IMG/VR virus record: IMGVR_UViG_3300046787_000399
Coordinates: 1 to 41,414 of that record
DNA length: 41,414 nt
Source: a virus
Strand: one strand, 5' to 3'
In this document: piece after piece, positions 2,105-41,414 of the stretch
Position numbering within the stretch: position 1 is the stretch's first letter
Layout: every line of letters starts with the position of its first letter
Program-made: the position numbers and the translations under genes
Notes under the pieces: model-generated
Seen by the model: only the letters and a program-made list of their open reading frames with translations
The model's database searches: none
What the model was told of the DNA's origin: nothing

Positions 2105-2178
2105 GCTCTCATAGTATAACGGCAATACACGTCCTTGGTAAGGACGAGCACCAAGTTCGATTCTTGGTGGGAGCACCA
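2105..2178 (+). tRNA. tRNA-Thr(GGT), CCA encoded
   Basis: Acceptor 2105-2111 pairs with 2168-2174 (one T-G pair); D stem GTAT/ATAC; anticodon stem CGTCC/GGACG with loop TTGGTAA, anticodon GGT at 2137-2139 (codon ACC, and ACU by wobble); four-base variable loop; T arm CCAAG-TTCGATT-CTTGG; discriminator A and encoded CCA at 2175-2178. It begins five bases after a hairpin and ends 13 bases before the next coding start, so it must be processed from a longer transcript. Confidence 0.9.
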
Positions 2179-2191
2179 TTATAATTTTGTC

Positions 2192-24807: not shown

Positions 24808-25069
24808 GTATGTAGATGCAGAGGCTGTGCCACCACCACTAGTAAAAAAACAAGTGTGGGATGCAGACAATCAAGTGTTTGTGCCTGTATCAATGTATCG
24901 GTTTCAAGGTGTGCTCAATAGCATAAAGTTGGACTGGTTAAAAGAAACATACGGACCGCCGGGTGTGTACAAACATGGAAGATTTTGGGATTACAGCAAA
25001 GGCGGAAACTTTACTGTGATGGATGAAAAAGTTTATATGTGGTATCAAATGAAATGGGGAAATAAATGA
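24788..25069 (+). CDS. Unknown protein, 93 residues
   Basis: ATG inside the end of the preceding gene; TAA-less ATGA overlap with the epimerase start at 25066. Begins MWAQNIEYVDAEAVPPPLVK; contains LDWLKETYGPPGVYKHGRFW. No known motif. Probably translated with the epimerase gene. Confidence 0.65.
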   Translation: MWAQNIEYVDAEAVPPPLVKKQVWDADNQVFVPVSMYRFQGVLNSIKLDWLKETYGPPGVYKHGRFWDYSKGGNFTVMDEKVYMWYQMKWGNK

Positions 25070-26037
25070 GCAAGTTTTTAGTAACAGGTGGGCATGGCCT
25101 AATTGGGCACAATGTGGTGCAACGATTGCAAGCACGTGGGGAAACAGTTAGTGTAGTAGACACTCACACCACATACGGAATTATCCCGCAAGCGGAGATT
25201 GATTACTTGATCAGTGAGCGACTCAACAAGATCACTGACCACACATATTACAATCAGTGTATCACAGACGGGTATGAGATTGATCATATTGTAGAAAAAG
25301 AGCAGCCCAAGGTGATCATTCATTGTGCCAGCTTTCCCAGACAGAAAGTGGTCAATGCCAACCCTGCACATGGTGCTGACGTCATGATGCGTGGTTTGAT
25401 CAACTTGTTGGAGAGTGCCAAAAAGCACGGGGTAGAACGTTTTGTGTACATCAGTAGCAGCATGGTGTACGGGGACTTTGAAGATCAAGTGTTGGAAGAT
25501 GATCCTTGTGCGCCACAAGGACAATACGGCATCATGAAGCTGGCAGGAGAATGGCTTGTTAAAGATTATGCAAGAAGAACAGGTATGGAATATGTTATCA
25601 TCCGTCCGTCGGCAGTATATGGGCCTTTGGACGTGGAAGATAGGGTTGTTGCAAAGTTTATGCTCCAAGCCATGCGTGGTGGTGTTCTCCGGGTCAACGG
25701 TGCGTCGGAGACGCTGGACTTTACATACGTCGATGATGCTGCAGATGGCATTGTTGCGGCTGCGACTAGGATCATGTGTCGCAACATGGTATTCAACATC
25801 ACCAAGAGTCATAGTGTTACGCTCCTCGAAGCGGCAGAAATGATTGTGAAGATTGTGGGCAAGGGCACTATTGAAACACGAGACAAGGATGCAGATTTCC
25901 CAAGCCGTGGCGCACTCAACATTGATCGTGCTCGAACTATTCTGGGCTTTGACCCCAAAGTTGATGTAGAACAAGGATTCCGTGAATACTATGACTGGCT
26001 TTCGAATTCCGTTTACTGGTCTCCCAAGACAGTATAA
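25066..26037 (+). CDS. NAD(P)-dependent sugar epimerase/dehydratase (extended SDR)
   Basis: 323 residues. Rossmann TGGHGLIG at residues 7-14, catalytic Ser region YISSSMVYGD (128-137) and YGIMK (Tyr-154, Lys-158), then IIRPSAVYGP and FTYVDDAADGI: the NDP-sugar epimerase/dehydratase family (GalE, RmlB, WbpM-like). It acts on a nucleotide-bound sugar; the exact reaction cannot be read off. The aminotransferase gene overlaps its end, so the pair probably makes an amino or deoxy-amino sugar. Confidence 0.92.
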   Translation: MSKFLVTGGHGLIGHNVVQRLQARGETVSVVDTHTTYGIIPQAEIDYLISERLNKITDHTYYNQCITDGYEIDHIVEKEQPKVIIHCASFPRQKVVNANPAHGADVMMRGLINLLESAKKHGVERFVYISSSMVYGDFEDQVLEDDPCAPQGQYGIMKLAGEWLVKDYARRTGMEYVIIRPSAVYGPLDVEDRVVAKFMLQAMRGGVLRVNGASETLDFTYVDDAADGIVAAATRIMCRNMVFNITKSHSVTLLEAAEMIVKIVGKGTIETRDKDADFPSRGALNIDRARTILGFDPKVDVEQGFREYYDWLSNSVYWSPKTV

Positions 26038-27094
26038 CAACCTACGCCAAGAGATACTGGACTCAACTGACCAGGTGTTGCAATCTGGTCAGCTCATGAA
26101 CGGGCCCTGGACTCGTAAGTTTGAAAACTGGCTGGCAGTTAGGAACGGGGGCAAAAATGCAGTAACCTGCCACTCGGGTACGCAGGCTCTGGAAATCATT
26201 GCCGAATACTGGCGTGGACTAGAACTAACCAACCGGCAACCGCGAGTGTTGATTCCTAGCTTGACGTTTGTGGCAACGGCCAATGCGTTTTTGCGAGCCG
26301 GCTGGGACGTACACTTTATAGATGTAGATATCAACGGTTTGTTTGACCCTGACAAAATTCCGCAGGATCTTGATTATCAGGCCGTGGTCCTGGTAGGATT
26401 GTATGGTGCTGCTATTTCTCATGCCCACTCAGTCAAAGCCTGGACACATTGGCTACACAACAATGTCACTGTGATCGAAGATGCTGCACAACACTGGTTG
26501 GGTAACAACAGTCTTCGAGTTGGCGAGGGTAGTGCTATCAGCTTTGACCCTATGAAGAACTTGGCTTGCTATGGCAATGGCGGTGCAGTGGTCACAGACA
26601 ATCAAGATCTAGCAGACTTTGCACGGGCCTGGGGCAATCACAACAAAGGTGACTACAAGGCAGAACGTGGTGGCAGTAACAGTCGCATGAGCGAGCTAGA
26701 CTGTGCTCACATGATGGTCAAGACACAGTACATTGATCAGTGGCAAGGGAGGCGTCGAAAGATTGCTGCTTACATGTGTGAGCGTTTTGCAAATACCAGC
26801 ATACGTTGTTTGATCAATGAACAAAACGAACACAACCATGCGTTTCATAAGTTTGTGATTGATGTTGATCACCGCAATCGACTACGAGAAAAGCTGTGGG
26901 ATGCCAGCATCGAAACCAATATACATTATGCTCAGCCCTTGCATTATGATTCTGTGCTGCGCCAATTTCCCGGGCCCAATATGTTGAGTGTAGCGTCTGC
27001 ACTGTGTCAGCGTGTGCTGAGCCTGCCTATCTACCCCGAGCTGTCTGACTCAGAGGTAGAATATGTTACTGATCAGGTACTAAAGAACGTTTGA
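25991..27094 (+). CDS. DegT/DnrJ/EryC1-type sugar aminotransferase
   Basis: 367 residues from the ATG at 25991; a GTG at 25982 is also in frame. PLP-dependent amino transfer to a keto sugar. Seen: GPWTRKFENWLA, CHSGTQALEI, PSLTFVATANAFLRAG, EDAAQHWLG (Asp-164) and the PLP-binding Lys-189 in SFDPMKNLACYGNGGAVVT; QQR-type C-terminus with IYPELSDSEVEYV. Overlaps the epimerase by 47 bases. Tail-to-tail overlap of 29 bases with the next, minus-strand gene. Confidence 0.93.
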   Translation: MTGFRIPFTGLPRQYNNLRQEILDSTDQVLQSGQLMNGPWTRKFENWLAVRNGGKNAVTCHSGTQALEIIAEYWRGLELTNRQPRVLIPSLTFVATANAFLRAGWDVHFIDVDINGLFDPDKIPQDLDYQAVVLVGLYGAAISHAHSVKAWTHWLHNNVTVIEDAAQHWLGNNSLRVGEGSAISFDPMKNLACYGNGGAVVTDNQDLADFARAWGNHNKGDYKAERGGSNSRMSELDCAHMMVKTQYIDQWQGRRRKIAAYMCERFANTSIRCLINEQNEHNHAFHKFVIDVDHRNRLREKLWDASIETNIHYAQPLHYDSVLRQFPGPNMLSVASALCQRVLSLPIYPELSDSEVEYVTDQVLKNV

Positions 27095-30000
27095 CAAACG
27101 CATAACTTGCCAGCCAATCCCACTCGTAGCTCTTGCGGAGTTCAGTGGGATCACCTTTGACTTGCTCGTAATACTCCACAGCATCTTCTGCACCTCGAAT
27201 GCTCCACTCTCCGTTCCAGCCGTCGCCTTTGGTGAGCCATTGACTTAGTCTATATTCGCTTTCAACATCAGGCTTGGATGCTTCAAGTTTGATTACTTCC
27301 CGGAATGCTGTTCTCCATGCTGACCAAGCAGTATCAGTGTACCATGCTGTGCCTGAGTCAATAGGAACAACTTCGTGCGCACTGTCCAGAGTAAAGTCCA
27401 GCCCTTGGCCTGTATTGGCCAACACCAATTCTCGATTGTAGGCAATCATGGCCTGATGGCCATAGATCAGACCATTGCAGGGATTGTAGGCATGAAAGAT
27501 ATAGTGCTTGGGTTGCTGCATACGGTCAGGTTGCCACGACCAGTCAAATTTTTTGTTGACTTGTAACTTGGCAAATACTGCAAAGAACCAAGGTGTAGTG
27601 GACTTTTGAGCAGCCGCATGATATGCTGCCACACGACCTTTTACCCCATCAACACGATACACATGATTGTTTCGATTGTAGGTACTGTCTTTTAGACGCT
27701 GATAATTTTGATCTGCGTTTTTCTCTCCGTTTGAGATGAACACAATGTCCAAAGGATTATCGCCGTGTCGTTTTCGTTGTGTTTTGTCAATGTAAGGGTA
27801 GTCATATAGTTGTGTTTTGACACTGCCTTTGGCTGTTTTTGGCACAACAACTGCACTGGCACCAGCACTCAATGGCACAACAACCTTGGTCTCTTGGCGC
27901 CACAGTGGGATAGCAGGAATAGTAATTGGCATGCCATTTGTGGTAAACAATGCAACTGGCCCGGCCCAGTCTGTATTTTTTACTGCATCAACATGCGAAT
28001 CAGCGCTGTGTTCGATCACTGGCATGCTGCGTCGAGGTACAGATATACGTGGCACATAGTTCACACTATACCATTCCAGCAAGGCCTTTTTCTCTGCACG
28101 TTCAGCAAAGGTAGGCACATGCATGTAGAATGTGTCCCCAAACTTTTGTTCGTTAGATGCAAACACATGCAGCATTGTGGTTTGCCAACGTTCAGGGTGC
28201 CACGAGAAGTCAAATCCTGAGTAGTCACAGATACTACTGCATACCCATACCCACTCGTGCTCGCCTACTAGACTTTTGGCCAGGCGGATCAAGGTGTCTC
28301 TGTAGTTGTCAAAGTAACGTATGCGTTTGAGTGTGTTGGGAATGTTGCCTGCGTTTCCATCCAAATGATCAATTTCAATGATAGGAACTGTGGCTGTTTT
28401 TATTTCCACTTGCACATGCTCAAGGTACTTGATTTCTGTGGCACCAGGCACAGTATACACAGGACCACCTGTCTTTTGATGCTGTGTAGCAAACTGATAG
28501 ATGTAAGGAGGTTCGCCTGGATCAGGCACCCAGGTGTAATCCACTTGGTCTTCTTTGACGTTGGGCGGAACAGTCCATAGTGTAGTGTTGGGCAACAACG
28601 TTGCGTGTGGGTAGTCCATGTATTTGACGGCACTAGACTCATCTGCGTTGTCAGCACAATACCTCAAGGTAGGCATCTTTTCTGCTGGCCAGTGTTGATT
28701 GCCAAACACATATACCATGGGAGGTTCGCCTGGGTCAGGTTGCCATGAGTAATCAAACTCGTAACGATGCTCGCTTAAATTGTCCCAGTTCTTGGTAGAC
28801 TCCAGTAACTGAGCACGTGGATAATCCATGTACTTGCGTTCTGTTGCACCCGGTACTGTGTATGTTAGTGTAGGCATCACTTCTGCAGAGTGCCATTGAT
28901 TGCCAAACACGTATATGTAGGCAGGATCTCCTGGGTCAGGAATCCAACTATAATCCCACTCGCAGTCAATTAGTGTGTGCCAGCGATTATCATGTCGTTC
29001 TGGTAACTGAGCTCGAGGATGATCCATGTACTTGAGTTCACTAGCACCATCTACACGATACTCTAGTGTGGGCATGATCTCTGCGGTATGCCATTGATTG
29101 CCAAACACGTATATGTAAGGAGGTTCTGTAGGATCTGGCCTCCAAGAGTAATCAAAGTCTGCTACTGGCGCTAGGCTAGTGAACTTGGCAGGCGCTGCCT
29201 GCACCTTTGCAATTATTTCATCAATATACTTGGTTTCGCTAGCACCATCAACATGATACACAATCGTGGGTTCAATAACACCTGAATTCCATTGATTACC
29301 AAACACATAGTCCATTGGAGGATCAAACGGGTTGGGTTCCCAAGAATAATCAAATTCTTCTATGTTGATATTCACCCGCCACTGATTGCCGTAGTTGGGC
29401 AAACGAGTGGTACGTTGATCCATGTACTTGATTTCTGTAGCACCCGGGACCACATAACGAACACTGACTTTGTGTTCAGGTGGGTTCCATTGATTGCCCC
29501 ACACGTATATGTAAGGCGGATCTTTGGGGTTAGGCACCCAGGTCCAGTCCCACGCTGTTTCGTCTATGGATTCAAGTATTTCCCAGTTATCTCTTGTGGG
29601 CAACAAAGGCACTACAGTATCTACAAACTTGTCTTCTGTGGCGCCAGGCACATGATAAGTTGCTGTGGGCATGATCTCAGCCGGATACCATTGATTGCCA
29701 AACACATAGTTATAAGGTGGCTCGCACGGATCTGGCACCCAGCTAAAGTCTATGCTGCCAACATCTGCGTTGGCTGTTATTGACCAGTTTTGCTGATTGG
29801 GCATTAACTGTGCTGGCATCTGCATAAACTTGATATCAGTTGCTCCTGGCACCTGGTACTCTACTGTGGGCATTTGTTCAGCAGGCCAATGTTGATTGCC
29901 CCATACGTATATGTAAGGAGGTTCTAGTGGGTGCGGTGCCCATGTCCAGTCCCATTGATCTTGTGCAATAGGGTGCAACACCTTCCAGTTGTCTTGGCTA

Positions 30001-30287
30001 GACTTGTTTGGTACTACTGTGGTGTGAAAATTGATTTGGTCAGTTGGAGTTTTAGGCACCAGATATGTGCCAGAATATTCGTGATGCTGATTGGGCCAAA
30101 CATGCAATTGATGCGCTTGCCACGGTGCTGGCTCCCAAAGAAAGTCAAAGCCACTGTAGTCCGCTAAGTAGTTTACAACCCAACAAAACCTAGTGCGACT
30201 CAATTGCTGTGCATGCTCAACACTGTTTGCACACTGCTCATGAGCAAACAAGCTTGGCTTTTTTCCAATATAAAATACGTCAAACAT
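27066..30287 (-). CDS. Giant tandem-repeat protein with glycosyltransferase-like ends
   Basis: 1073 residues. About eight consecutive units of 65-70 residues occupy roughly residues 110-620. Each begins with FDYSWxPDPxEPPYxYVFGNQW and continues MPTxxYxVPGATExKYMD. Diverged versions stand at the N-terminus (DYSGFDFLWEPAPW) and near residue 700 (DYSGFDFSWHPERW). A C-terminal segment (LDIVFISNGEKNADQNYQRL, later TPWFFAVFAKLQV, FDWSWQPD) resembles the start and metal-site region of a GT-A glycosyltransferase, but the DxD is not evident. Its start codon overlaps that of the divergent gene. Glycan binding or transfer is inferred; the family is not one I can name. Confidence 0.7.
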   Translation of the reverse strand: MFDVFYIGKKPSLFAHEQCANSVEHAQQLSRTRFCWVVNYLADYSGFDFLWEPAPWQAHQLHVWPNQHHEYSGTYLVPKTPTDQINFHTTVVPNKSSQDNWKVLHPIAQDQWDWTWAPHPLEPPYIYVWGNQHWPAEQMPTVEYQVPGATDIKFMQMPAQLMPNQQNWSITANADVGSIDFSWVPDPCEPPYNYVFGNQWYPAEIMPTATYHVPGATEDKFVDTVVPLLPTRDNWEILESIDETAWDWTWVPNPKDPPYIYVWGNQWNPPEHKVSVRYVVPGATEIKYMDQRTTRLPNYGNQWRVNINIEEFDYSWEPNPFDPPMDYVFGNQWNSGVIEPTIVYHVDGASETKYIDEIIAKVQAAPAKFTSLAPVADFDYSWRPDPTEPPYIYVFGNQWHTAEIMPTLEYRVDGASELKYMDHPRAQLPERHDNRWHTLIDCEWDYSWIPDPGDPAYIYVFGNQWHSAEVMPTLTYTVPGATERKYMDYPRAQLLESTKNWDNLSEHRYEFDYSWQPDPGEPPMVYVFGNQHWPAEKMPTLRYCADNADESSAVKYMDYPHATLLPNTTLWTVPPNVKEDQVDYTWVPDPGEPPYIYQFATQHQKTGGPVYTVPGATEIKYLEHVQVEIKTATVPIIEIDHLDGNAGNIPNTLKRIRYFDNYRDTLIRLAKSLVGEHEWVWVCSSICDYSGFDFSWHPERWQTTMLHVFASNEQKFGDTFYMHVPTFAERAEKKALLEWYSVNYVPRISVPRRSMPVIEHSADSHVDAVKNTDWAGPVALFTTNGMPITIPAIPLWRQETKVVVPLSAGASAVVVPKTAKGSVKTQLYDYPYIDKTQRKRHGDNPLDIVFISNGEKNADQNYQRLKDSTYNRNNHVYRVDGVKGRVAAYHAAAQKSTTPWFFAVFAKLQVNKKFDWSWQPDRMQQPKHYIFHAYNPCNGLIYGHQAMIAYNRELVLANTGQGLDFTLDSAHEVVPIDSGTAWYTDTAWSAWRTAFREVIKLEASKPDVESEYRLSQWLTKGDGWNGEWSIRGAEDAVEYYEQVKGDPTELRKSYEWDWLASYAFVKRSLVPDQ
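28440..29960 (-). repeat. Tandem protein-coding repeats of about 200 bases
   Basis: Eight units. The DNA coding for the 'GNQW/GNQH' core appears at about 28480 (diverged), 28690, 28905, 29097, 29292, 29490, 29693 and 29893, so the period is 192-215 bases (64-71 codons). Units share words such as TTGATTGCCAAACACGTATATG-like blocks but have drifted at the DNA level, so the duplications are old. Indels between units are whole codons. Confidence 0.85.
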
Positions 30288-31422
30288 GCTTAGAATAGAT
30301 GAAATTTACAACAATACCTTTTGGCCTTGGTTAAGGGCCAACCGCCCTGGATTCAGAGCATTTTTTTGCGAACCATTTGGTAGAAGTGACGCAGACAGCG
30401 TCATGAACTACGGCAGAGATGATATACACGAACACAATTATATATTCTTTTTTGACCAAGAGCCAATACATTTGAACATACACATGCCTACTTTTTTAGC
30501 AGTTCAAGGCCACAATGCGGATCTTATCAAGAATGAGCCAGTAACCTATTCTTTTCAACGGTGTGGGTGGCCAACACCAGGATATTTGCTTACCAGTGAG
30601 CAAAATAGTGAATATGTTGATTTAGTGTGTACAAGATTCAAGTGGAAGCCTTTGTATTATTTCTTTCACGGGTGGGCTGCACTAGACTGGTATCGTGGAT
30701 ACGACAAGACGTTTTTGATTACCCCTCTGGCTCAACGTAAAATTACAAAAACGTTTATAGCCCCAAATCGTATTGTGGCCGGCGAACGGTTGCACAGGTT
30801 AGAAATGCTGTACCACATATTCAAAAACAACATGACCAACAATCATATTAGTTGTCCAGCAGTGTGTCCAGCAGAGAACATCAGCATCGAAGCCGCGGCT
30901 GAGCCATTGTTGCAAAAGTATCCAGACATTCAACAAGTGTTTGCTGCACAGACCTTGCCCATAAACTTTGAGGGAGAAACAGACCACCCCATGCATTCAT
31001 GCTGGCTCAGTTTGTTTGACCAAGCAGGCGAAAGTCTGTTATACTTGGTAACAGAAACTGTGGCTTCTGGTCGCAGACATCATCTTACTGAAAAAACATT
31101 CAAGCCCATTGCCTTGGGCATGCCCTTTGTACTTGTGGGCACAAAAGGCAGTTTGAAGTATTTGCGTAGTTATGGATTCCGAACATTTGACGGTATCTGG
31201 GACGAGAGTTATGATGACGCTGAAGATCATGACAGAATTGAGCGTATTGCTAGTCTATTGAATAGTCTAGACAAATTATCCGACCTTGCTAAACAAACGT
31301 TGTTTGAGCGATGTCGTGAAGTTATAGAACACAATTGGAATCACTTCTATGGGGGAGGATTTGAAGCTGTTCTATGGCAAGAACTAAATGAGATGTTAAA
31401 TGGAATTGAATCTAATAGCTGA
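30286..31422 (+). CDS. Glycosyltransferase-like protein, paralogue 2
   Basis: 378 residues. FFFDQEPIH and YYFFHGWAALDWYRG (N-terminal half) and LVTETVASGRRHHLTEKTFKPI ... LRSYGFRTFDGIWDESYDD (C-terminal half) match paralogue 1 at 12611. The TEK-containing block resembles the donor site of GT10-like enzymes. The ATG at 30286 overlaps the divergent gene's ATG (CATG). The next paralogue starts 23 bases before its end. Probably attaches a sugar to a phage or host surface structure; substrate unknown. Confidence 0.68.
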   Translation: MLRIDEIYNNTFWPWLRANRPGFRAFFCEPFGRSDADSVMNYGRDDIHEHNYIFFFDQEPIHLNIHMPTFLAVQGHNADLIKNEPVTYSFQRCGWPTPGYLLTSEQNSEYVDLVCTRFKWKPLYYFFHGWAALDWYRGYDKTFLITPLAQRKITKTFIAPNRIVAGERLHRLEMLYHIFKNNMTNNHISCPAVCPAENISIEAAAEPLLQKYPDIQQVFAAQTLPINFEGETDHPMHSCWLSLFDQAGESLLYLVTETVASGRRHHLTEKTFKPIALGMPFVLVGTKGSLKYLRSYGFRTFDGIWDESYDDAEDHDRIERIASLLNSLDKLSDLAKQTLFERCREVIEHNWNHFYGGGFEAVLWQELNEMLNGIESNS

Positions 31423-32572
31423 TCAAGTGATCAAAGGGCGTATATACCCTTCATTGGCGCAGCATCAAGCACGACCTTACACACCCGCCTGGCGCGAGTT
31501 TGGCTCCTACTTTCCTTATACTATACCGTTAAGGCTGCAGGAATATTGTGAACAGCATGGTGTAAAAATCAATATTCACCACATTCACAATAAACTGCCT
31601 GCTAACACTTTTTATCCTGTGGGCCTAGGGTTCTTTAACTTTGGTATTGATTATTTTACCTTGCTGCCCGCCGCAGTGTTTACTGCTGTGTACGAAGGTA
31701 AAGTTCGAGTACTGTTTTACTATCACGAAGGAGACAATCCAGCTAGGATCAAGCAGCGTCTTGACCAACTGGCTTTTAATGTTCGGCTTCCGCAAAACTG
31801 TTATGTATTTGTAAGCGCAAATTCAGCTGCTGACTCTGTTCCGGGGTTTGTGTATTTTAACGACTTTGAGTTATGGTATTACCAACGCAACTGTGATCAG
31901 CCTGCATTACCAGTTCATGCACAGCCACGTGAGCGAGAATTCACAGCACTGAATCGACTGCACAAGTCGTGGCGTGCTACTGCCATGGCAGATCTATTAC
32001 GGCACAAAGTACTGAATAACAGTTACTGGAGCTATTGCGAAACTGGTAGCGTGGGTACTGACAATCCTATTGAGATCAACAATATTGATGGGTTAAGTGA
32101 AGCTACTGACAAGTTCTTGCAAAATGCCCCGTATATTAGTGATGAATCAGATCAAGATCAACGCAACAATCACTCAGTAACCGATTTCAAATATCATGTC
32201 AACAGCTACTGTAACATAGTGTTGGAAACGCACTTTGATGCTGACCAAAGCGGCGGTGTATTTCTAACAGAAAAAACATTCAAGCCTATCAAACACGGTC
32301 AATTGTTTTTTATTGCTGGACCTGCAGGTAGTTTGCAAGCCTTGCGTGACTTGGGCTATAAAACGTTTGACTCAGTACTGGATAACACCTACGATCGTAT
32401 TGTGGACAACACTCAACGTTGGTTACGATTGTGCGAAGCTATACAACAATCTCAACACAGGTTGGCTGACCGATTTGAAGCTGCTCGTGCTGATATTGAA
32501 CATAACCAACAGTTATTTTTGGCCAACAAAGCCAACCGTTTAAATACTTTATTCACTAAACTAAACACATGA
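31400..32572 (+). CDS. Glycosyltransferase-like protein, paralogue 3
   Basis: 390 residues. Shares the C-terminal block NIVLETHFD, VFLTEKTFKPIKHGQ, GSLQALRDLGYKTFDSVLDNTYD with the other two paralogues, while its N-terminal half is different (FYYHEGDNPARIKQRL; FVYFNDFELW). Could use another acceptor. Its stop overlaps the amidinotransferase start (ATGA), so the two are co-translated. GT assignment by motif resemblance only. Confidence 0.65.
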   Translation: MELNLIADQVIKGRIYPSLAQHQARPYTPAWREFGSYFPYTIPLRLQEYCEQHGVKINIHHIHNKLPANTFYPVGLGFFNFGIDYFTLLPAAVFTAVYEGKVRVLFYYHEGDNPARIKQRLDQLAFNVRLPQNCYVFVSANSAADSVPGFVYFNDFELWYYQRNCDQPALPVHAQPREREFTALNRLHKSWRATAMADLLRHKVLNNSYWSYCETGSVGTDNPIEINNIDGLSEATDKFLQNAPYISDESDQDQRNNHSVTDFKYHVNSYCNIVLETHFDADQSGGVFLTEKTFKPIKHGQLFFIAGPAGSLQALRDLGYKTFDSVLDNTYDRIVDNTQRWLRLCEAIQQSQHRLADRFEAARADIEHNQQLFLANKANRLNTLFTKLNT

Positions 32573-33588: not shown

Positions 33589-34589
33589 TGTACCGGCTCA
33601 GTGACATTGTTGCGTTGGATATTGAATTGTCCAGCAAGTGCAATGCAGAGTGCCCGTTGTGTCCACGTAACTTTCACGGGTATCCTGAAAATCGTGGATA
33701 CACTGAACACAACATGACCTTGGCTGAGTTTCAACACATAGCCAAGCCTGAGTTTCTGAGTCAATTGAAGTCGGTTTGGATCAATGGCAACTTTGGCGAC
33801 ATGTTGATGAATCCCGACACTGTGAGCATTGTTAGATATATCACACAACACAGTACAGCACAGATTGCTGCATCAACCAATGGCGGAGCACGAGATAAAC
33901 AATTCTGGCAAGATTTAGCAACACTAGGAGTAATAGTTCATTTTTGCATTGACGGACTTGAGGACACTCACAGTATCTATCGTAAAAACACAGTGTACAG
34001 TGTAGTGATGGCCAATGCACAAAAATTCATTGCAGCTGGTGGTCATGCTGTGTGGAAAATGACACGGTTTGATCACAATGCTCATCAAATTGATCAAGCC
34101 CGACAACTGGCTCAGGACTTGGGTTTTCGGTCTCATGATCTAATAGATCACGGTCGTAGTAATAGTCCAGTATACAACAAAGAAAAAAAACTAGTAAATG
34201 TGATAGGAAATGTTCCGCACACTGAGTTTGAAGTATTATGGCACAGCAGGTTCAACAACACTGTGCAACACAAAAAACAACAACTTGGTCCTGTTTCGTG
34301 CAAGGCACAAAACAAAAAAGAACTTTACATCAGCAGTGTTGGCGATGTTTATCCTTGTTGTTTTTTAGGTTACAATCCTGAAACGTTTGAACGTGGTATG
34401 AACACGTACTACAACAAAATCAATCAAGAACTTGCACCAATGATTGCTAACAACAATGCACTAAAAAATACTCTGGAACAATGCATTGAATGGTTCAATC
34501 AAATACCCCCAACTTGGGACACTGATCCCTTGCTGGCGTGCAATGACTTCTGCGGCAGCAGTAGTCTTTATTCAAAGGCGCCCACATGA
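33588..34589 (+). CDS. Radical SAM/SPASM-type protein
   Basis: 333 residues. ELSSKCNAECPLCPRN gives the CxxxCxxC cluster at Cys-18, -22, -25, very close to the N-terminus. Three further Cys groups (VSCKAQ; VYPCCFLG; LLACNDFCG) in the last 100 residues fit a SPASM-type auxiliary iron-sulphur domain, as in peptide- or sugar-modifying enzymes. Starts on the stop of the amidinotransferase; the next radical SAM gene overlaps its end (ATGA). Confidence 0.88.
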   Translation: MYRLSDIVALDIELSSKCNAECPLCPRNFHGYPENRGYTEHNMTLAEFQHIAKPEFLSQLKSVWINGNFGDMLMNPDTVSIVRYITQHSTAQIAASTNGGARDKQFWQDLATLGVIVHFCIDGLEDTHSIYRKNTVYSVVMANAQKFIAAGGHAVWKMTRFDHNAHQIDQARQLAQDLGFRSHDLIDHGRSNSPVYNKEKKLVNVIGNVPHTEFEVLWHSRFNNTVQHKKQQLGPVSCKAQNKKELYISSVGDVYPCCFLGYNPETFERGMNTYYNKINQELAPMIANNNALKNTLEQCIEWFNQIPPTWDTDPLLACNDFCGSSSLYSKAPT

Positions 34590-35605
34590 TTATCCCTATC
34601 GCCAATCAACATTCATTTAACACAATTCCTCGTAATGCACAGCTAGGCCACAAGATAGACTACCGTTGTAATGCACCTAGCAAGCAACTGGTAATAGACT
34701 GGAAGGGAGATTGCTTTGTATGCGGTTGTGAAGCATGGTTACCTATAAGTCCCGGAAAGATAACAGACTTTGAAAAGCTAGCAGATGTTTGGTTGCATCC
34801 TACCTCTACAGCATTACAAAAAGATATTGATTCAGGTGCATTTACTCATTGTGCTGTGGACCGTTGCGGTGTAATGAATAATGATTTATTTGATACTCGT
34901 TATGTAGTAAGCATCAACATAGACGAAAGCTGTAATCTAGCCTGCCCCAGCTGTAGAGATCACAGCATAATGATTTCATCCGGGGCCGATTACGAACTCA
35001 AACTAGCCCAGGTACAGCACACACGCAAGCTACTGGAACAGTTTGATCAACCTTGTCACATTGTAATGAGTGGCAATGGCGATCCGTTAGCGTCAGCTAT
35101 TATGCGTCCGTTGATTCGAGAATTTCAACCTGGGCCCAATCAAACAATTCGATTGTTTACCAATGGCTTGCTAATGGAAAAACAATTAAGTGACTCGCCT
35201 ATACTGGAACACATTACTCAATACTTTATCAGCATTGATGCAGGCTCTGCGGCAGTGTATCATGACGTTCGTAGGCCCGGAAACTGGAACGTGTTGATGC
35301 GCAACTTGGAATGGCTCAAGCTGGTACAGCAACGCACTGGCGCAGAAGTGCTGTTGAAGTTTGTTTTGCAACAAGCCAACTACCGAGACATACAGAACTT
35401 TTGTGAACTGTGTATAGACTTTGGATTCAATGGTGTTGTAAACAGACTAGAAGACTGGGGCACATGGACCAGCTTCACAGCGCAAGATGTTGTGGGTAAC
35501 ACTGCACACCCTGAACACAGCGCTGCAATAGAAAATCTGCGTACAGCACATGGCCTGTACGCAGATCAAATTCAATTCAACGCCAGCTTAGTTGAGCTCT
35601 GCTAA
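34586..35605 (+). CDS. Radical SAM protein with SPASM-like cluster at the N-terminus
   Basis: 339 residues. The radical SAM cluster CNLACPSC is at Cys-116, -120, -123, preceded by a Cys-rich segment: Cys-28, then GDCFVCGCEAW (43, 46, 48), KITDFEKLADVWLHP and FTHCAVDRCG (89, 94). That order (C...G-x-CxxC...IW-S/H...C...C) is what a SPASM/twitch domain shows at the C-terminus of ordinary enzymes; here it comes first. Coupled to the preceding radical SAM gene. Convergent 18-base overlap with the next, minus-strand radical SAM gene. Substrate unknown. Confidence 0.88.
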   Translation: MIIPIANQHSFNTIPRNAQLGHKIDYRCNAPSKQLVIDWKGDCFVCGCEAWLPISPGKITDFEKLADVWLHPTSTALQKDIDSGAFTHCAVDRCGVMNNDLFDTRYVVSINIDESCNLACPSCRDHSIMISSGADYELKLAQVQHTRKLLEQFDQPCHIVMSGNGDPLASAIMRPLIREFQPGPNQTIRLFTNGLLMEKQLSDSPILEHITQYFISIDAGSAAVYHDVRRPGNWNVLMRNLEWLKLVQQRTGAEVLLKFVLQQANYRDIQNFCELCIDFGFNGVVNRLEDWGTWTSFTAQDVVGNTAHPEHSAAIENLRTAHGLYADQIQFNASLVELC

Positions 35606-36853
35606 CCAAGGAAATAGATCCGGCCAGTGTGTACCGCGGCGACGATCTATTTCAGTCAAATAAACCTTTAGGTCATCTATGCGTGATTGATCACGTGGCC
35701 CTGCTTGTATCTGTCGCATGATACCTGCCATGTGTTCACGTGCATCTAGAGACCCTGGTTTGTCTGTGGGCATGGCTGCTAGCACACGTTCAAAGTCTGC
35801 ATCAAACACACCTGCACCAAAGATATCCGGCACCATTTCAGGCGGTGTCATTACTGACATAAAGCTGAAGCTGATAGGATTCCAAGGGTTACGGCGTGCG
35901 TTCCATCCATTAATACGTTCCACTAGATCAGGCAGTGTTTTAATTGTCAGCGCTGAGATAGCTGTATTCATGCACATAACAACCCAGTCTTTATCCAGTA
36001 GATATTCCCAGTTCTCTTGCCATTCAGCAAGATCCAAGCCCCAGCGTACATATTCTTCTTGTGGCCCCCATGCATCCAAGCTACCTGTAATTTGTAGACG
36101 CTTTAACGCACCAGCATTAACCATTGCGCCAAAGCGATCAATATATGCTTTGAACTTCTTGGTGGGCACTTTCAAGTTGGTAATGATATTGAATGTTAGC
36201 TCAGGATTAGGATGTGCTTCCCAGAAGTCCAAGCTGGTATCAAATTCCTTTTGAAAGAAAGGTTCCCCGCCTAGGATCTGATAGTAGCGTATGTGCCGGT
36301 AACGATCTTTATCTTCAAGATACTGCCAAAAGTCTGCTAGTTGTTTTTCGTAGTTGGGGTTACTAGGCTGATTAAAACCAAATTTAACACGCCCTTGTTC
36401 AAATATGCCAAAGCGTTTGTTTTCTTCTTCCCATTTAGTTGAGAAGTGTGATCCACAGTACAAGCAGGCCATGTTACACACATTGCTAAAGTACACTTCC
36501 AGGATAGTGGGTACTACTTCATTTGTTTCGGGATCAACGACTAATTCTTCTGGCGTACGATCTTTTTCGTGCCCGGCTTTTAGTTGATATTGTCTATCAC
36601 TTAGTCCACCTGCTGCTTCGATCTTTTCACAGTATTGACAGCCTTCTTGCGGCCATTCTCCACGGCGCATCATTTCTCTAGCACGTACTTTGTTGGGCAA
36701 GTTGTGAAAGCTTGCAAAGTTGTCTACAGGAATAGGTGCTTGATCTGTTCTATGGCAGCTTGAGCTTGTGCCCTGTCCCAAGTACACTGTTGACCACGCC
36801 CATTTTAACAAGCAGGCAGTGTCACTCTTTATTGGAAATACTCTATCAGTCAT
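35588..36853 (-). CDS. Radical SAM protein with N-terminal twitch domain
   Basis: 421 residues. N-terminal Cys-14, Cys-33 and GCQYC (72, 75) form the twitch-type domain; the radical SAM cluster CNMACLYC is at Cys-126, -130, -133, followed by ILGGEPFFQKEF. This layout is the known 'twitch domain-containing radical SAM protein' group. The start overlaps the carbamoyltransferase stop (ATGA), so both come from one minus-strand operon running from beyond the window edge. Substrate unknown. Confidence 0.9.
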   Translation of the reverse strand: MTDRVFPIKSDTACLLKWAWSTVYLGQGTSSSCHRTDQAPIPVDNFASFHNLPNKVRAREMMRRGEWPQEGCQYCEKIEAAGGLSDRQYQLKAGHEKDRTPEELVVDPETNEVVPTILEVYFSNVCNMACLYCGSHFSTKWEEENKRFGIFEQGRVKFGFNQPSNPNYEKQLADFWQYLEDKDRYRHIRYYQILGGEPFFQKEFDTSLDFWEAHPNPELTFNIITNLKVPTKKFKAYIDRFGAMVNAGALKRLQITGSLDAWGPQEEYVRWGLDLAEWQENWEYLLDKDWVVMCMNTAISALTIKTLPDLVERINGWNARRNPWNPISFSFMSVMTPPEMVPDIFGAGVFDADFERVLAAMPTDKPGSLDAREHMAGIMRQIQAGPRDQSRIDDLKVYLTEIDRRRGTHWPDLFPWLAELN

Positions 36854-38337
36854 GAGCAGACTTTCACTCCGTATAATTTTTCAAAACGATCTGCATCTGC
36901 ACGATCATTAACCATGGGCTCACCGCGAATGTTCAAGCTGGTATTCAGCAATATAGGACAGCCGGACAACACATACCATTTTTCTAACAGTTCTCTGATT
37001 CCCGATCCATCTTTAGGAACTGTCTGTACACGACTAGTCCCATCAGCATGAATGATAGCAGGAAATAACTCAGGATGCCTGCAACGAGCGATTGACTGCA
37101 TATACCTATTAGTACTGAACCCACGAGGCATATCAAAATACTGATCAGCAAGCTCTTCCAGAATGACTGGCGCAAACGGTCTAAATTGTTGGCGTTTTTT
37201 AATTGCATTAACACGTTCCTTTATATCAGGGCCACGGGGGTCAGCTAACAAACTTCTGTTACCTAGCGCTCGCGGACCAAACTCAGAGCGGCCGCTAGCG
37301 ACACCAACGATACGATTAGTAACAAGCTCGTCCAGAATGGCATGTACAGGGTAAGCACCGCCAATATCATGGCCCAGAAAAGCATTGTGCCAATTAATCC
37401 TACCACCATGAGCCAGCGCGGCGGCGCCCAGACTACTGCCAGCATCACCAGGACAAGGCATAATCCAAATATTGTCAAATAGTTCACCCAGCCTCCTATT
37501 GGCACTACAGTTTAGTGCAACACCTCCAGCATAAACTAGATTTTTGCTCCAACCATGTCCACGTGCTCTACTCATTACATTCATGATCAAGTCTTCCACA
37601 AGATCCTGAGCACCGGCTGCAATATCCACGTCACCAATATGACTAAGGTACTTTTGTTCCAGGCCAGTGTGCAAGTTGTTGCGGAAACGAATTTCCCATT
37701 CATTTGCCACCAAGTCCTGTTTCATTAAATCGCCAAAGCCACGTTCGCCATAAGCAGCCATGCCCATTAGAATGTATTCTTCGTCTAGTGGGCGTAGGCC
37801 AACGCGGCCAGTAACTGCAGAGTAGAAGAGTCCAATTGAATGCGGGTAACGCTGGCTCCAAAGTTTGCGATAATTCGCTTTACCAAGTTTATCATATTCT
37901 GCTGCCCATATTGTTACAGTGTCAAATTCGCCTACAGCATCAATTACTACCACAGTAGCGCGGTCAAACGGTGACGTTTGAAAGCCACCTGCTGCATGGC
38001 TAAGATGATGATTGTGCGTGCTGATGCGTGCTGGCAAGTTGACCATTCCGCTCAGCTGATCATTAATGATGCGTCTAGCCGTCAGCTTGTTCCATTCTAT
38101 GCCTTGCCCTGAATACAATTGTCTTAACTGTTTCAACCATGGGCGTTCATAGTAGGCAATCTGATTGATTTCACCACCATACTCTATAGCGTCTTGAATC
38201 AGTTCAAGACATAGGTTTTCGTCATTTTTTTTCTTGCTGTAACGCTCACTGTGGCTGGCAAACAAAATATCACCTTGCGGTGATATTACTGTGGCTGCTG
38301 CATCATGAAAGCCAGCTGATATTCCTAAGATACTCAT
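36850..38337 (-). CDS. Carbamoyltransferase, NodU/CmcH/TobZ family
   Basis: 495 residues. Carbamoyl transfer from carbamoyl phosphate by way of carbamoyl-AMP to a hydroxyl of a sugar or antibiotic. Seen: GISAGFHDAAATV at the N-terminus, the metal-binding HNHHLSHAAGG (108-118), VVIDAVGEFDTVT, AGGVALNCSANRRL, GSSLGAAA, and the YrdC-like C-terminal part with SEFGPRALGNRSLLADPR and PILLNTSLNIRGEPMV. Slightly shorter than TobZ (about 570). In a minus-strand operon with three radical SAM genes and two unknowns. Confidence 0.95.
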   Translation of the reverse strand: MSILGISAGFHDAAATVISPQGDILFASHSERYSKKKNDENLCLELIQDAIEYGGEINQIAYYERPWLKQLRQLYSGQGIEWNKLTARRIINDQLSGMVNLPARISTHNHHLSHAAGGFQTSPFDRATVVVIDAVGEFDTVTIWAAEYDKLGKANYRKLWSQRYPHSIGLFYSAVTGRVGLRPLDEEYILMGMAAYGERGFGDLMKQDLVANEWEIRFRNNLHTGLEQKYLSHIGDVDIAAGAQDLVEDLIMNVMSRARGHGWSKNLVYAGGVALNCSANRRLGELFDNIWIMPCPGDAGSSLGAAALAHGGRINWHNAFLGHDIGGAYPVHAILDELVTNRIVGVASGRSEFGPRALGNRSLLADPRGPDIKERVNAIKKRQQFRPFAPVILEELADQYFDMPRGFSTNRYMQSIARCRHPELFPAIIHADGTSRVQTVPKDGSGIRELLEKWYVLSGCPILLNTSLNIRGEPMVNDRADADRFEKLYGVKVCS

Positions 38338-38435
38338 TTGTAGATAAACGGATCTCGTTTGCGCAACTCTTTGAGTTTTTTACGATAACGAATTTCCAAT
38401 GTGATTCGTGCCCATAGTCGTTGGATCCAATTCAT
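38334..38435 (-). CDS. Micro-protein, 33 residues, basic
   Basis: ATG on the minus strand at 38435 overlaps the stop of the upstream gene (ATGA), and its TGA overlaps the carbamoyltransferase ATG (ATGA). Sequence starts MNWIQRLWARITLEIRYRKK and ends in KRDPFIYK: an amphipathic, strongly basic helix. Exact overlaps on both sides support translation. Possibly membrane-associated or a partner of the carbamoyltransferase. Confidence 0.65.
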   Translation of the reverse strand: MNWIQRLWARITLEIRYRKKLKELRKRDPFIYK

Positions 38436-39475
38436 TTCAATTCCTTTATTTGTTGATCAGCGTAATCTGGATTGCGCCAGTCATATGTGTATGTAGCTGT
38501 TGTTTTGCCTATTTGAATTTTATACACATCCAAGTGCTGTGCTAATTGTGCCCAGATCTTTTGATAGTCCGCAGTACCAAAGCTTTTGATCAAATTCACT
38601 TGTGCTACTTTGGGGTGGCCTATTGTGAGACTTTTGTCTTCAGGATCAAATCCATTGGCAGTTAGCCATTCTCTAAACTCAACTAGTTTCTTTTGTTGCC
38701 ACGGGTACGCACCAGGATCACGGGCCCATTCAATATCAAAGTCGCCTGCGGCTTGTGTTTGTGCTCGCAAGGATGTTGTAGTCAACTCACTAAGTCTTGA
38801 ATCCCTGCCTTCGTCATTGAATACTTCCCAATGCGCTTTGCCTACAGCTTTGTTGACGCCCACATACACTCCGCCCAGTTGTCGATTGATTGTTTCAATA
38901 CCAAACAGTTCATAGTCTTCAGGATCTAGTTCAAATCTTGGTGCTCGTAACCAACACATGAGTTGACTGGGTCGACGCCACTCGGGCGCTTGTACTGCTT
39001 TACGCATACTCAACACTAGACTCTCTAGTTCATGACACAACAAATTCAATTGTCGAATATGCCATCTAGTATGATCGTCAGCTGCGGTGTAGTAAGGACT
39101 CATTGCCCCTGACACGCCCTGTAAATCTTCAAAGTATCTATGCAACCAATTCATGCGTTCATGGTTGATGTCTAGGTCTGGTTGTATTACTGATGCTACT
39201 GTGTATTCAGGACAGTCAATGCGGTATCCCAAATTGGCTTGATTAACTGCATTGATACTACGATTGATTTCACCGCAAATGTATTCTGCAGTTCTTTCAC
39301 TTTCGGTCCAGCCCAGCCAACAATAGTTTTTTTCCAAATGATATTGATTCTCTACCAATTCTGTTAGAGCAGCCAACCATTTTTGGCCTAGGCTGCTGTT
39401 GTACACATCAATGTAAACTGGTAATAAACTACCAGTGCGATTGCTTCGCAATGTAATTGTGATTTTGTTACTCAA
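38432..39475 (-). CDS. Unknown protein, 347 residues
   Basis: The only usable start is TTG at 39475 (no ATG or GTG before residue 100), eight bases inside the preceding radical SAM gene. Soluble, alpha/beta, many Trp/Tyr; no Cys cluster, P-loop or membrane helix. Blocks such as GDFDIEWARDPGAYPW, KLVEFREWLTANGFDPED and VAQVNLIKSFG look conserved in type but I cannot name a family. Position between a radical SAM enzyme and a carbamoyltransferase makes it a candidate member of the same pathway. Confidence 0.65.
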   Translation of the reverse strand: MSNKITITLRSNRTGSLLPVYIDVYNSSLGQKWLAALTELVENQYHLEKNYCWLGWTESERTAEYICGEINRSINAVNQANLGYRIDCPEYTVASVIQPDLDINHERMNWLHRYFEDLQGVSGAMSPYYTAADDHTRWHIRQLNLLCHELESLVLSMRKAVQAPEWRRPSQLMCWLRAPRFELDPEDYELFGIETINRQLGGVYVGVNKAVGKAHWEVFNDEGRDSRLSELTTTSLRAQTQAAGDFDIEWARDPGAYPWQQKKLVEFREWLTANGFDPEDKSLTIGHPKVAQVNLIKSFGTADYQKIWAQLAQHLDVYKIQIGKTTATYTYDWRNPDYADQQIKELK

Positions 39476-40766
39476 TTTGATCCCACCATTCTTTCACCGC
39501 TGGTTTTGCACTCAAAATTTCTGCCATAGAAGTTGAGGCTGTGCGTATGCTTTCTAATTTTAACACACGAGCTTTGCCTTGTACAAGAGCCTGACGATAT
39601 GTATCTGGCCATTGTTCCTCAAACGTGGGTCGTGTTTTTAACTGTGAGAGCACATCACGCATGCTGGCAATAGTACACTCAGCAATTAACTCATCTAACC
39701 AAGGATCCAGCAAGGATCTAGGCAGTGCAAGCGGACTCATTACAATGCTGGGCTCAAAGCTGAATATCACTTTGCTCAGTAACTCTACATCATATTGTTT
39801 TGCCATGCTTTGTATGTTGCCAACTTCAAACATGCCCGGCAGTGTGAGGGTAAAGTCCAGCCGCATTTGTCTACGGTTGCGCTGATGCTTTAATCCTGCT
39901 TCGAAGTTTTGGCAGAATTGTTGATAGTCGAGTCCGGTTCGGATGTATTCTCCAATCGCTCCTGTGCCGTCGATGCTAGCGCAAATCTGCCAATCGCGTA
40001 CATGGTCCAAAATATCCCTATATAGATTAATACCACGATAGTCAATACGGCTAAGATTGGTGTTATATCTTGCATACACACGCCCTCCATCATTTAATTC
40101 AACAATACGCTGCATATAGCGCCAGTGTTGTTCATACATGAGTGGTTCACCACCTACCCAGTACACTTCTTCTACTCGATGCTGTTCTACCGCCTGAGCA
40201 AACTCCTGTTCAACTTGATCCTCTTGAAAGGCTCGAATCTGCGGTCGGATATCTGCTCGCATCCAATTGTTTTTTGGATTTGCCCAATGCACCATGTCAT
40301 GAGATTTTTCTTCAGCTTCCCACGAGCTGGACAACATGTCTCCACAAGTTCTACATTTGAAGTTGCAAAGGTTGCTAAATCTATAATCCCAGCTAACAGG
40401 CTGCATTGTGGTAGCTCCACTGGCATCAGTTGTGGCATACACCTCCGGTAATTTGTGCGCAAACAAGTGTCCAAAGTAATCTCTGTACACTGAGGTATTT
40501 AACAGTTTGCTATTGCACACATCACACTCGGGCAGGGTTTCTCCAGCCATCATTCTTTTACGCACACTCTTCATGTGGTCACTATTCCAGTGCTGTTCTA
40601 GTGTTACAGGAATATAACTGCCTGTGCCAGATGCAGTATCTATGTACTGTTCAAAATTCTGTGCAGGCTCGCGGCTGGCACAGCACAATCGTCGCTCAGT
40701 TTGTGGAGAAAGATATGTGTGTGTCCAAGGCGCAAGGCACAAGGTATCAGGCTTTGGAGTAGTCAT
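39468..40766 (-). CDS. Radical SAM protein with N-terminal twitch domain
   Basis: 432 residues from the ATG at 40766; a TTG two codons upstream is possible. N-terminal LCLAPWTHTYLSP (Cys-10), LCCAS (28, 29) and PECDVC (81, 84) form the twitch-type cluster; the radical SAM cluster CNFKCRTC is at Cys-134, -138, -141, followed by VYWVGGEPLMYE. Same group as the protein at 35588 but clearly diverged. Starts 20 bases inside the upstream radical SAM gene. Confidence 0.9.
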   Translation of the reverse strand: MTTPKPDTLCLAPWTHTYLSPQTERRLCCASREPAQNFEQYIDTASGTGSYIPVTLEQHWNSDHMKSVRKRMMAGETLPECDVCNSKLLNTSVYRDYFGHLFAHKLPEVYATTDASGATTMQPVSWDYRFSNLCNFKCRTCGDMLSSSWEAEEKSHDMVHWANPKNNWMRADIRPQIRAFQEDQVEQEFAQAVEQHRVEEVYWVGGEPLMYEQHWRYMQRIVELNDGGRVYARYNTNLSRIDYRGINLYRDILDHVRDWQICASIDGTGAIGEYIRTGLDYQQFCQNFEAGLKHQRNRRQMRLDFTLTLPGMFEVGNIQSMAKQYDVELLSKVIFSFEPSIVMSPLALPRSLLDPWLDELIAECTIASMRDVLSQLKTRPTFEEQWPDTYRQALVQGKARVLKLESIRTASTSMAEILSAKPAVKEWWDQIE

Positions 40767-41414
40767 AGTCAATTAAGGCAGCAAACTCAGGTTCTACAGT
40801 GGCTAAATTTTGTCCGCGCTTGCGATCCAGATCTCGAATTTTCATTCGCAACATAAAGCCATCTGTTGATGCACCCTTGCGCATGAAATCACATATGCGG
40901 TCAAACTCGTCGCGCCATTGAGCTGGAATGTTGGCTGATTCTAAATGTAATATAATTTCATTCTTGGCTGATTCAGGCAATGTAGCAATGCTAAAGTACC
41001 AAGCATCATGCATCATGTTCCAGTACACAAAATCAAATCCTTGTGTGGCTATCCACTGTGCCAGTTGATCAATGTAGCGCACATTGAATACGTTTACGGT
41101 ACTGCAACACTGCAAACGAATGTTGGTGTGCTGTTCCCTCAGCAGTTTGAATCTAGCTAGATTTTGTTCTACTTCAGCAAACACTGCGTTGGTACGCTGA
41201 TATTCAAATCTAGCACCTAAATCATCAATGCTGAATGCTATTTCCACTGTTTTGAAATGCTTCCAAATTTCAATAGCTTGTTCAGGATACTGTGTACCAT
41301 TGGTGTTGTAGTGGATTTCTACTTGGTGTGCAATACCACGGTCCACAATACCTTGCAACATAGCAAAGTGTTGTTCGATCATGAATGGTTCACCACCAGT
41401 AAATTCAATGTAAC
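40747..41414 (-). CDS. Radical SAM protein, C-terminal part (cut by window edge)
   Basis: The frame runs to the window end: YIEFTGGEPFMIEQHFAM at the edge contains the GGE motif of radical SAM proteins, so the CxxxCxxC cluster lies beyond 41414. Visible part about 222 residues with HYNTNGTQYPE, FSIDDLGARFEYQR and YWNMMHDAWYF, all typical of the barrel. No C-terminal SPASM cysteines are visible. First visible gene of a minus-strand operon of at least six genes. Confidence 0.85.
   Translation of the reverse strand, partial: YIEFTGGEPFMIEQHFAMLQGIVDRGIAHQVEIHYNTNGTQYPEQAIEIWKHFKTVEIAFSIDDLGARFEYQRTNAVFAEVEQNLARFKLLREQHTNIRLQCCSTVNVFNVRYIDQLAQWIATQGFDFVYWNMMHDAWYFSIATLPESAKNEIILHLESANIPAQWRDEFDRICDFMRKGASTDGFMLRMKIRDLDRKRGQNLATVEPEFAALIDYDYSKA

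What the first reader, a model, noticed from the sequence alone, without database searches (positions are those of the whole stretch)
25066..41414. Phage modification cluster: six-member radical SAM set in the window with amidino-, carbamoyl- and aminotransferase plus glycosyltransferases
Within 16 kb lie an epimerase/dehydratase, a DegT aminotransferase, two GT-like paralogues, a 1073-residue repeat protein, an amidinotransferase, five radical SAM proteins (two with N-terminal twitch domains), a NodU-type carbamoyltransferase and a conserved unknown, almost all coupled by overlapping codons. A sixth radical SAM enzyme and two PP-loop synthetases lie at the left. Together these are the enzyme types of aminoglycoside-like or guanidino-sugar pathways. 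I infer a pathway that decorates virion, host glycan, or phage DNA.
Basis: partly seen in the sequence, partly recalled or inferred. Interest (0 to 1): 0.78.

Follow-up and report, generated by a model that had tools for sequence, protein, structure and literature searches.

The report
Jumbo-phage tail-side radical-SAM modification island
A widespread group of uncultured giant phages carries, next to its tail-fibre genes, a conserved block of sugar-, carbamoyl-, amidino- and radical-SAM enzymes that most likely chemically decorates the virion, a richer version of clusters already seen in other large phages.

Summary
All 13 genes are there, 99.4% coding, with only one gap. The amidinotransferase is a true AGAT/StrB1-type enzyme, and the carbamoyltransferase, DegT, epimerase and radical SAM calls are confirmed. 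Four of the five radical SAM proteins, not two, carry an N-terminal twitch/SPASM-like domain. The 'GT-like' pair has no profile support. The 1073-aa protein has eight 66-aa repeats and a GT-A-fold domain whose DxD motif is lost; an intact paralogue (DGD) lies further along the same cluster.

The window is a fragment of a jumbo-phage lineage (contigs up to 364 kb) related to RaK2/CBB/Atu_ph07/Phosso. Gene order is conserved in about 89 environmental loci under purifying selection. In 12 of 12 large contigs the cluster runs on, through more twitch radical SAMs and GT-like genes, into fibre and giant tail genes. Each of 14 contigs encodes 6-17 twitch radical SAM enzymes above the curated cut-off.

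Best reading: a cytoplasmic pathway decorating tail/fibre proteins with a modified amino-sugar glycan, with radical SAM chemistry on glycan or protein. Neither substrate nor product is known. Host-surface modification is weaker; DNA modification has no support. Clusters of this kind are published; this is a new, elaborate variant.

The parts
25066..26037 (+). EPI: NAD-dependent nucleotide-sugar epimerase/dehydratase
   Evidence: PF01370 2e-45; phrog_540 nucleotide-sugar epimerase 1e-60
25982..27094 (+). DegT: DegT/DnrJ/EryC1 PLP sugar aminotransferase
   Evidence: PF01041 2.5e-63; nearest solved relatives scyllo-inositol/nucleotide-sugar aminotransferases 1e-43
27066..30287 (-). REP: 1073-aa repeat protein; eight 66-aa repeats (residues 113-640) and a C-terminal GT-A-fold domain without DxD (pseudo-glycosyltransferase)
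   Evidence: copy number 0-10 among relatives
30286..31422 (+). gt1: GT-like paralogue, family unproven; its ATG overlaps the start codon of REP in CATG
   Evidence: no Pfam or PDB match
31400..32572 (+). gt2: GT-like paralogue of gt1, family unproven
32569..33588 (+). AMD: amidinotransferase (AGAT/StrB1/SxtG superfamily), conserved HGD and GGxxC motifs; most conserved cluster protein (median 86% identity)
33588..34589 (+). rS1: radical SAM protein with C-terminal SPASM-like match (variable cassette)
   Evidence: PF04055 6e-6, PF13186 6e-5
34586..35605 (+). rS2: radical SAM protein with N-terminal SPASM-like match (variable cassette)
   Evidence: PF04055 2.8e-7, PF13186 7e-4
35588..36853 (-). 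tw1: N-terminal-twitch radical SAM protein (variable cassette)
   Evidence: NF033640 226 bits, cut-off 170
36850..38337 (-). CARB: NodU/TobZ/GdmN-type O-carbamoyltransferase
   Evidence: PF16861, PF02543; phrog_1601 5e-91; novobiocin carbamoyltransferase 1.4e-54, GdmN, TobZ in the PDB
38432..39475 (-). unk: conserved 347-aa protein; model (pLDDT 90.7) suggests a cyclophilin-like barrel with a helical insertion
39468..40772 (-). tw2: N-terminal-twitch radical SAM protein; core gene; seven cluster-type cysteines invariant (12, 31, 83, 86; 136, 140, 143)
   Evidence: NF033640 280 bits, cut-off 170; alignment A5
40747..41414 (-). tw3: twitch radical SAM protein cut by the window edge
   Evidence: PF04055 0.001; full-length homologue 88% identical in L166 5448-6659
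12611..13777 (-). gt0: third GT-like paralogue, outside the cluster proper
   Evidence: alignment A3 with gt1 and gt2; orthologue 71% identical near the left end of G001
15589..17124 (+). B12-type radical SAM protein at the left; not adjacent to the cluster
   Evidence: PF04055 3.5e-15; B12-binding radical SAM families
23759..24448 (+). ThyX: left boundary marker of the cluster slot in relatives
   Evidence: PF02511 2.9e-39; synteny

Best explanation
This is the left half of a virion-decoration island of a jumbo-phage lineage. SHOWN: the enzymes, their conserved order, purifying selection, continuation into more twitch radical SAM and GT-like genes, and direct abutment on fibre and giant tail genes. 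INFERRED: EPI and DegT make an amino-sugar nucleotide; AMD puts an amidino group on an amine (giving a guanidino group) and CARB a carbamoyl group on a hydroxyl; the GT-A and GT8-like enzymes further along transfer the sugars, in the cytoplasm, to Thr/Ser-rich fibre or other virion proteins; the twitch radical SAM enzymes each make one C-H functionalisation on the glycan or on the protein. REP, a repeat-expanded pseudo-glycosyltransferase, would act as a non-catalytic scaffold or acceptor/glycan-binding subunit. The decoration would tune receptor binding or shield the virion.
For: Synteny in about 89 loci: tw2 with unk present in 84, gt1 79, AMD 69, gt2 69, against 15 for tw1+rS2 and 4 for rS1, i.e. 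a core plus exchangeable cassettes. In 12/12 large contigs: cluster - REP1dom - GT8a/GT8b - fibA - fibB - h38438 - giant tail protein; in G001 the baseplate wedge protein follows (phrog_10646 6e-282). Named relatives confirm the virion module: homologues of h38438 and fibB in CBB are annotated structural, and the baseplate protein's relatives are Atu_ph07, Phosso, CBB, K64-1, Munch. MoxR and DUF2201 of the window match Phosso and CBB. A distant marine phage contig also links AMD, CARB and a twitch radical SAM; a cyanophage amidinotransferase sits among KdsA, KdsB and glycosyltransferases. No cluster protein has a convincing membrane segment (one in G001, tw6, looks like a mis-set start), and GtrA, Bac_transf and Wzx families are absent in 14 records while ringing in 7, 9 and 13 of 14 controls. 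fibA is 21.5% Thr.
Against: No substrate, product or host is known. Adjacency to fibre genes does not prove that they are the target; host-recognition regions also collect host-surface genes. gt1, gt2 and gt0 lack any family match. GT8a and GT8b are named from a motif and recall, not from a profile hit. Twitch/SPASM radical SAM enzymes of known function mostly act on peptides (established knowledge), and the N-terminal-twitch family has no characterised member known to me. The host could supply the lipid-carrier machinery.
Confidence: 0.5

Rival explanations
1. The island remodels the host's surface glycan (O-antigen or capsule) to exclude competing phages, as proposed for pelagimyophage glycosyltransferases.
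For: Nucleotide-sugar and GT-like genes beside tail fibres match the pelagimyophage host-recognition cluster, whose authors propose O-chain modification (PMC7029224); amidinotransferase beside KdsA/KdsB in cyanophage S-SCSM2R.
Against: No GtrA, polyprenyl glycosylphosphotransferase or Wzx families in 14 records with working controls; no convincing membrane segments. These records may be incomplete.
Confidence: 0.22
2. The radical SAM enzymes act on side chains or backbone of fibre proteins (RiPP-like protein maturation), and the sugar genes are a separate neighbouring function.
For: Twitch/SPASM enzymes of known function mostly modify peptides (established knowledge). In related Atu_ph07 the same slot holds three radical SAM genes beside a glycine-rich protein ending FCHSSCHASCHNSRSRR. 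332-Vera has eight radical SAM genes inside its structural cluster (PMC12390700).
Against: No room for a dedicated precursor gene in the window cluster: the only gap is 94 nt. fibA and fibB are not cysteine-rich. CARB is directly followed by a twitch radical SAM gene even in a distant phage, so sugar-type and radical genes travel together.
Confidence: 0.18
3. The pathway makes a modified nucleotide placed in phage DNA against restriction.
For: Phage glycosyltransferases and carbamoyl- or amino-type additions can modify DNA (general knowledge).
Against: No DNA-hypermodification enzyme was recognised in the window; the ADDT family was not found in 14 records, though that search had no positive control; genes sit with tail, not replication, genes.
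Confidence: 0.04
4. The cluster makes a diffusible aminocyclitol-like or guanidino small molecule.
For: Enzyme types (AMD, CARB, DegT, epimerase, radical SAM) recur in streptomycin-, tobramycin- and saxitoxin-type pathways.
Against: No cyclitol synthase was seen among the annotated cluster genes, and no exporter or resistance gene was recognised (not searched systematically); the cluster abuts virion genes.
Confidence: 0.04

Closest known systems
Host-recognition cluster of pelagimyophages (PMC7029224)
   Same: Tail-fibre region of a large T4-like phage enlarged by glycosyltransferases and radical SAM cassettes, differing between close relatives by cassette gain
   Different: Different phage lineage; here a fixed core with amidino- and carbamoyltransferase, pseudo-GT repeat protein and 6-17 twitch radical SAM genes per large contig
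Aeromonas phage 332-Vera (PMC12390700)
   Same: Eight radical SAM genes inside the tail/baseplate structural cluster of a giant freshwater phage
   Different: Chimallinviridae (phiKZ-like), not this lineage; no amidino- or carbamoyltransferase reported in the passage read
T4-like TARA_ERS488813_N000010 (PMC5332604)
   Same: 12 radical SAM genes in one phage genome
   Different: Marine, 183 kb; genes discussed as Fe-S metabolism, no decoration cluster described in the passage read
Agrobacterium phage Atu_ph07 and Sinorhizobium phage Phosso
   Same: Same tail backbone (baseplate wedge, giant protein, h38438, fibB) and several radical SAM genes in the same slot
   Different: None of their genes in that slot matches the cluster families built here
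Marine virus AG-345-D19 contig MH319727
   Same: Amidinotransferase, SGNH-like genes, carbamoyltransferase (48% identical) and a twitch radical SAM contiguous
   Different: Different orientation; the 8-kb contig shows no REP, unk, DegT or epimerase

Membership tests
N-terminal-twitch radical SAM (NF033640) | Score above the curated cut-off of 170 bits | tested here: met
   tw1 226, tw2 280 bits; 0 of 14 control genomes above the cut-off. rS1 and rS2 score 30-31 bits: not members
N-terminal-twitch radical SAM (NF033640) | CxxxCxxC core plus N-terminal auxiliary-cluster cysteines | tested here: met
   tw2 C136/C140/C143 and C12, C31, C83, C86 invariant in 17 sequences; same layout in tw1 and in full-length tw3
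Amidinotransferase (AGAT/StrB1) | Homology to solved amidinotransferases, with His-Asp and Cys motifs | tested here: met
   2jdx 3.5e-20; H185, D187 and C324 invariant
Amidinotransferase (AGAT/StrB1) | Amidino transfer from arginine to an amine | not testable with these tools
   needs an assay
NodU/TobZ O-carbamoyltransferase | Both N- and C-terminal family domains | tested here: met
   PF02543 and PF16861 above cut-off; NovN/GdmN/TobZ relatives
GT-A glycosyltransferase (REP C-terminal domain) | GT-A fold | tested here: met
   Z 12.2, 2.8 A over 141 residues to B4GALNT1; the rows shown are mostly GT-A enzymes and GT-A-like nucleotidyltransferases; profile match to REP1dom 2.4e-20
GT-A glycosyltransferase (REP C-terminal domain) | DxD metal motif | tested here: not met
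   DGD in 12/12 REP1dom paralogues, replaced by (F/P)(A/G)K in 31/31 REP sequences; a metal-independent enzyme is not excluded
Glycosyltransferase (gt0, gt1, gt2) | Match to any glycosyltransferase family or structure | tested here: inconclusive
   no Pfam glycosyltransferase hit across 24 members, no PDB hit; not modelled
Cyclophilin fold (unk) | Cyclophilin-like beta barrel | tested here: inconclusive
   Z 8.9, 3.5 A over 145 of 347 residues, top rows cyclophilin-like, but Foldseek has no significant match
Host-recognition cluster (pelagimyophage type) | Sugar and radical SAM genes contiguous with tail-fibre genes | tested here: met
   12/12 large relatives; the window itself ends before the fibres
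RiPP cluster | Precursor peptide gene beside the radical SAM genes | tested here: not met
   only one gap, of 94 nt, in the window cluster; overlapping small ORFs and a distant precursor are not excluded

The most novel reading that the evidence does not exclude
A jumbo-phage lineage carries a multi-enzyme assembly line, 6-17 twitch radical SAM enzymes plus amidino- and carbamoyltransferase organised by a repeat-expanded pseudo-glycosyltransferase scaffold, that writes a new kind of guanidinylated and carbamoylated, radical-modified glycan or peptide modification on its own tail fibres, with the cassettes exchanged to change it.
Probability: 0.25. Interest if true: 0.82.

Novelty: new variant of a known kind. 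Interest (0 to 1): 0.56.

Why it matters
No N-terminal-twitch radical SAM enzyme is characterised as far as I know, and these phages carry 6-17 each where none of 14 reference genomes has one above the cut-off. If the island decorates virions, phages have a chemically rich, cassette-exchanged way to vary their receptor-binding surface. Related isolates of the same tail backbone with radical SAM genes in the same slot (Phosso, Atu_ph07) make the general idea testable now.

Tried and rejected
INFORMATIVE NEGATIVES: no INPHARED phage record matches REP, tw2 or REP1dom by tblastn. Pfam and PDB give nothing useful for the gt family, REP by sequence or unk. Homology of the 66-aa repeat with the GT-A domain was suggested by eye (FDWSWQPD / DYSWxPDP) but hhalign gives only 17 columns at 13.6% probability, so it is not claimed. 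Atu_ph07 and Phosso radical SAM genes tested as homologues of the cluster: not found. The ADDT search is uninformative because no control rang. Bacterial homologues of unk: only three contigs in marine MAGs, at least one phage-like. A paper search for 'jumbo phage' + radical SAM + glycosyltransferase found none. TOOL SLIPS: the tw3 row is the truncated window copy (name collision), corrected; one region request was one base too long.
Full report
WHAT IS THERE. The window is a 41,414-base IMG/VR virus record, evidently a fragment. From 25066 to its right end 13 genes fill 99.4% of the sequence; 11 of 12 junctions overlap, the exception being a 94-nt gap. REP and gt1 are divergent with start codons overlapping in CATG at 30285-30288. 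Family assignments are in the parts list. The amidinotransferase is missed by Pfam but clear by profile against solved structures (AGAT 3.5e-20, StrB1, SxtG), with invariant HGD and GGxxC motifs.

CONSERVATION. Scans of IMG/VR found 86 stretches encoding REP relatives and 137 encoding tw2 relatives; 78 and 80 loci were kept. In about 89 loci left after a rough removal of duplicates that hold both CARB and REP, the order tw2-unk-CARB-[AMD]-gt2-gt1-REP-DegT-EPI-thyX recurs. Core genes are common (tw2 with unk 84, gt1 79, AMD 69, gt2 69). The tw1-rS2 pair is in 15 loci and rS1 in 4, so the three middle radical SAM genes of the window are an exchangeable cassette. AMD is the most conserved protein (median 86% identity), gt1 and gt2 the least (52-53%). 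dN/dS against four relatives is 0.03-0.17 wherever it could be computed; dS is often near saturation, so these are rough.

LINEAGE. The largest contigs with the cluster reach 320-364 kb. The baseplate wedge protein of one of them (G001) is closest to Atu_ph07, Phosso, CBB, K64-1 and Munch, and the window's MoxR and DUF2201 proteins match those of Phosso (47%, 44%) and CBB (30%, 37%) side by side. I believe from memory of the IMG numbers that most source samples are freshwater; this was not checked.

THE CLUSTER CONTINUES. In G001 (349 kb) the cluster runs from thyX at 8.3 kb through tw2, an epimerase, an SGNH-like and a gt-like gene, four further twitch radical SAM genes (the tw3 orthologue first), another gt-like gene, REP1dom and two GT8-like genes (named by motif, not by a profile hit) into fibA, fibB, h38438, a 4900-aa giant and the baseplate wedge protein. 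Eleven other large contigs were fetched; all show REP1dom, h33411, GT8a, GT8b, fibA, fibB, h38438 and the giant in that order. Homologues of h38438 and fibB in CBB are annotated as structural or virion structural proteins. Relative to CBB the block is an insertion in the region of the tail fibres.

RADICAL SAM NUMBER. Above the curated cut-off of NF033640, the 14 large contigs hold 6, 7, 8, 8, 8, 8, 8, 9, 9, 10, 10, 11, 16 and 17 genes (counted by hand). None of 14 control genomes holds one. Six contigs have 14-16 matches to PF04055.

REP. The window copy has eight 66-aa repeats at residues 113-640; relatives have 0-10, and length tracks repeat number (r 0.95). The model (pLDDT 87.6, pTM 0.48) places residues about 843-984 on GT-A enzymes (Z 12.2, 2.8 A, 141 residues to B4GALNT1). 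The same cluster in relatives encodes a single-domain paralogue, REP1dom, with DGD intact in 12/12, whereas 31/31 REP sequences checked read (F/P)(A/G)K there. REP is therefore probably a pseudo-glycosyltransferase; that it is a scaffold is inference.

UNK. Confident model (pLDDT 90.7); Foldseek finds nothing significant. The second look gives a block of cyclophilin-like rows at Z 7-9 with a helical insertion at 59-162. This is a lead, not a membership. Relatives occur in three marine contigs.

FUNCTION. Position beside virion genes, soluble enzymes, and absence of GtrA, Bac_transf and Wzx families in 14 records with working controls favour cytoplasmic decoration of virion proteins. fibA is Thr-rich. 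Independent linkage of AMD, CARB and a twitch radical SAM in marine virus AG-345-D19 argues that these act in one pathway. Whether the radical SAM enzymes act on sugar or on protein is open.

KNOWN PRECEDENTS. Pelagimyophage host-recognition clusters with glycosyltransferases and radical SAM cassettes (PMC7029224), eight radical SAM genes in the structural cluster of 332-Vera (PMC12390700), 12 radical SAM genes in a TARA T4-like phage (PMC5332604), and radical SAM plus 2OG oxygenases in jumbo phages FLC6/RSF1 (PMC8066314). The kind is known; the composition, fixed core and scale are new as far as the sources held here show.

Noticed in passing
window 3-560 +: 3' part of a class-I release factor (RF-1 domain 4e-18; GGQ and a PPT tripeptide, which by established knowledge is RF1-type).
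   Followed up: partly
window 6267-7553 +: Phage-encoded S-adenosylhomocysteine hydrolase (PF05221 2.4e-129), absent from relative G001 by blast.
   Followed up: partly
window 2135-3343 + and 3879-5027 +: Two proteins with SGGxDS PP-loop motifs but no Pfam match.
   Followed up: partly
window 30285-30288: REP and gt1 are divergent and share CATG at their start codons, leaving no promoter space between them.
   Followed up: no
L196 33119-34009: Atu_ph07 gp170: glycine-rich protein ending FCHSSCHASCHNSRSRR beside a radical SAM gene, in the slot next to fibB; looks RiPP-like.
   Followed up: partly
L165 18427-19011: In G001 the tw1-rS2-rS1 cassette is replaced by a small protein that looks like a 2OG-Fe(II) oxygenase by eye (no Pfam hit).
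   Followed up: partly
L203 1-7955: Marine virus AG-345-D19 contig with AMD, two SGNH-like genes, CARB and a twitch radical SAM contiguous.
   Followed up: yes
L200, L201, L202: Relatives of the conserved unknown in contigs binned in marine MAGs; L200 lies beside tail-fibre-like genes, L201 near DegT and PP-loop genes.
   Followed up: partly
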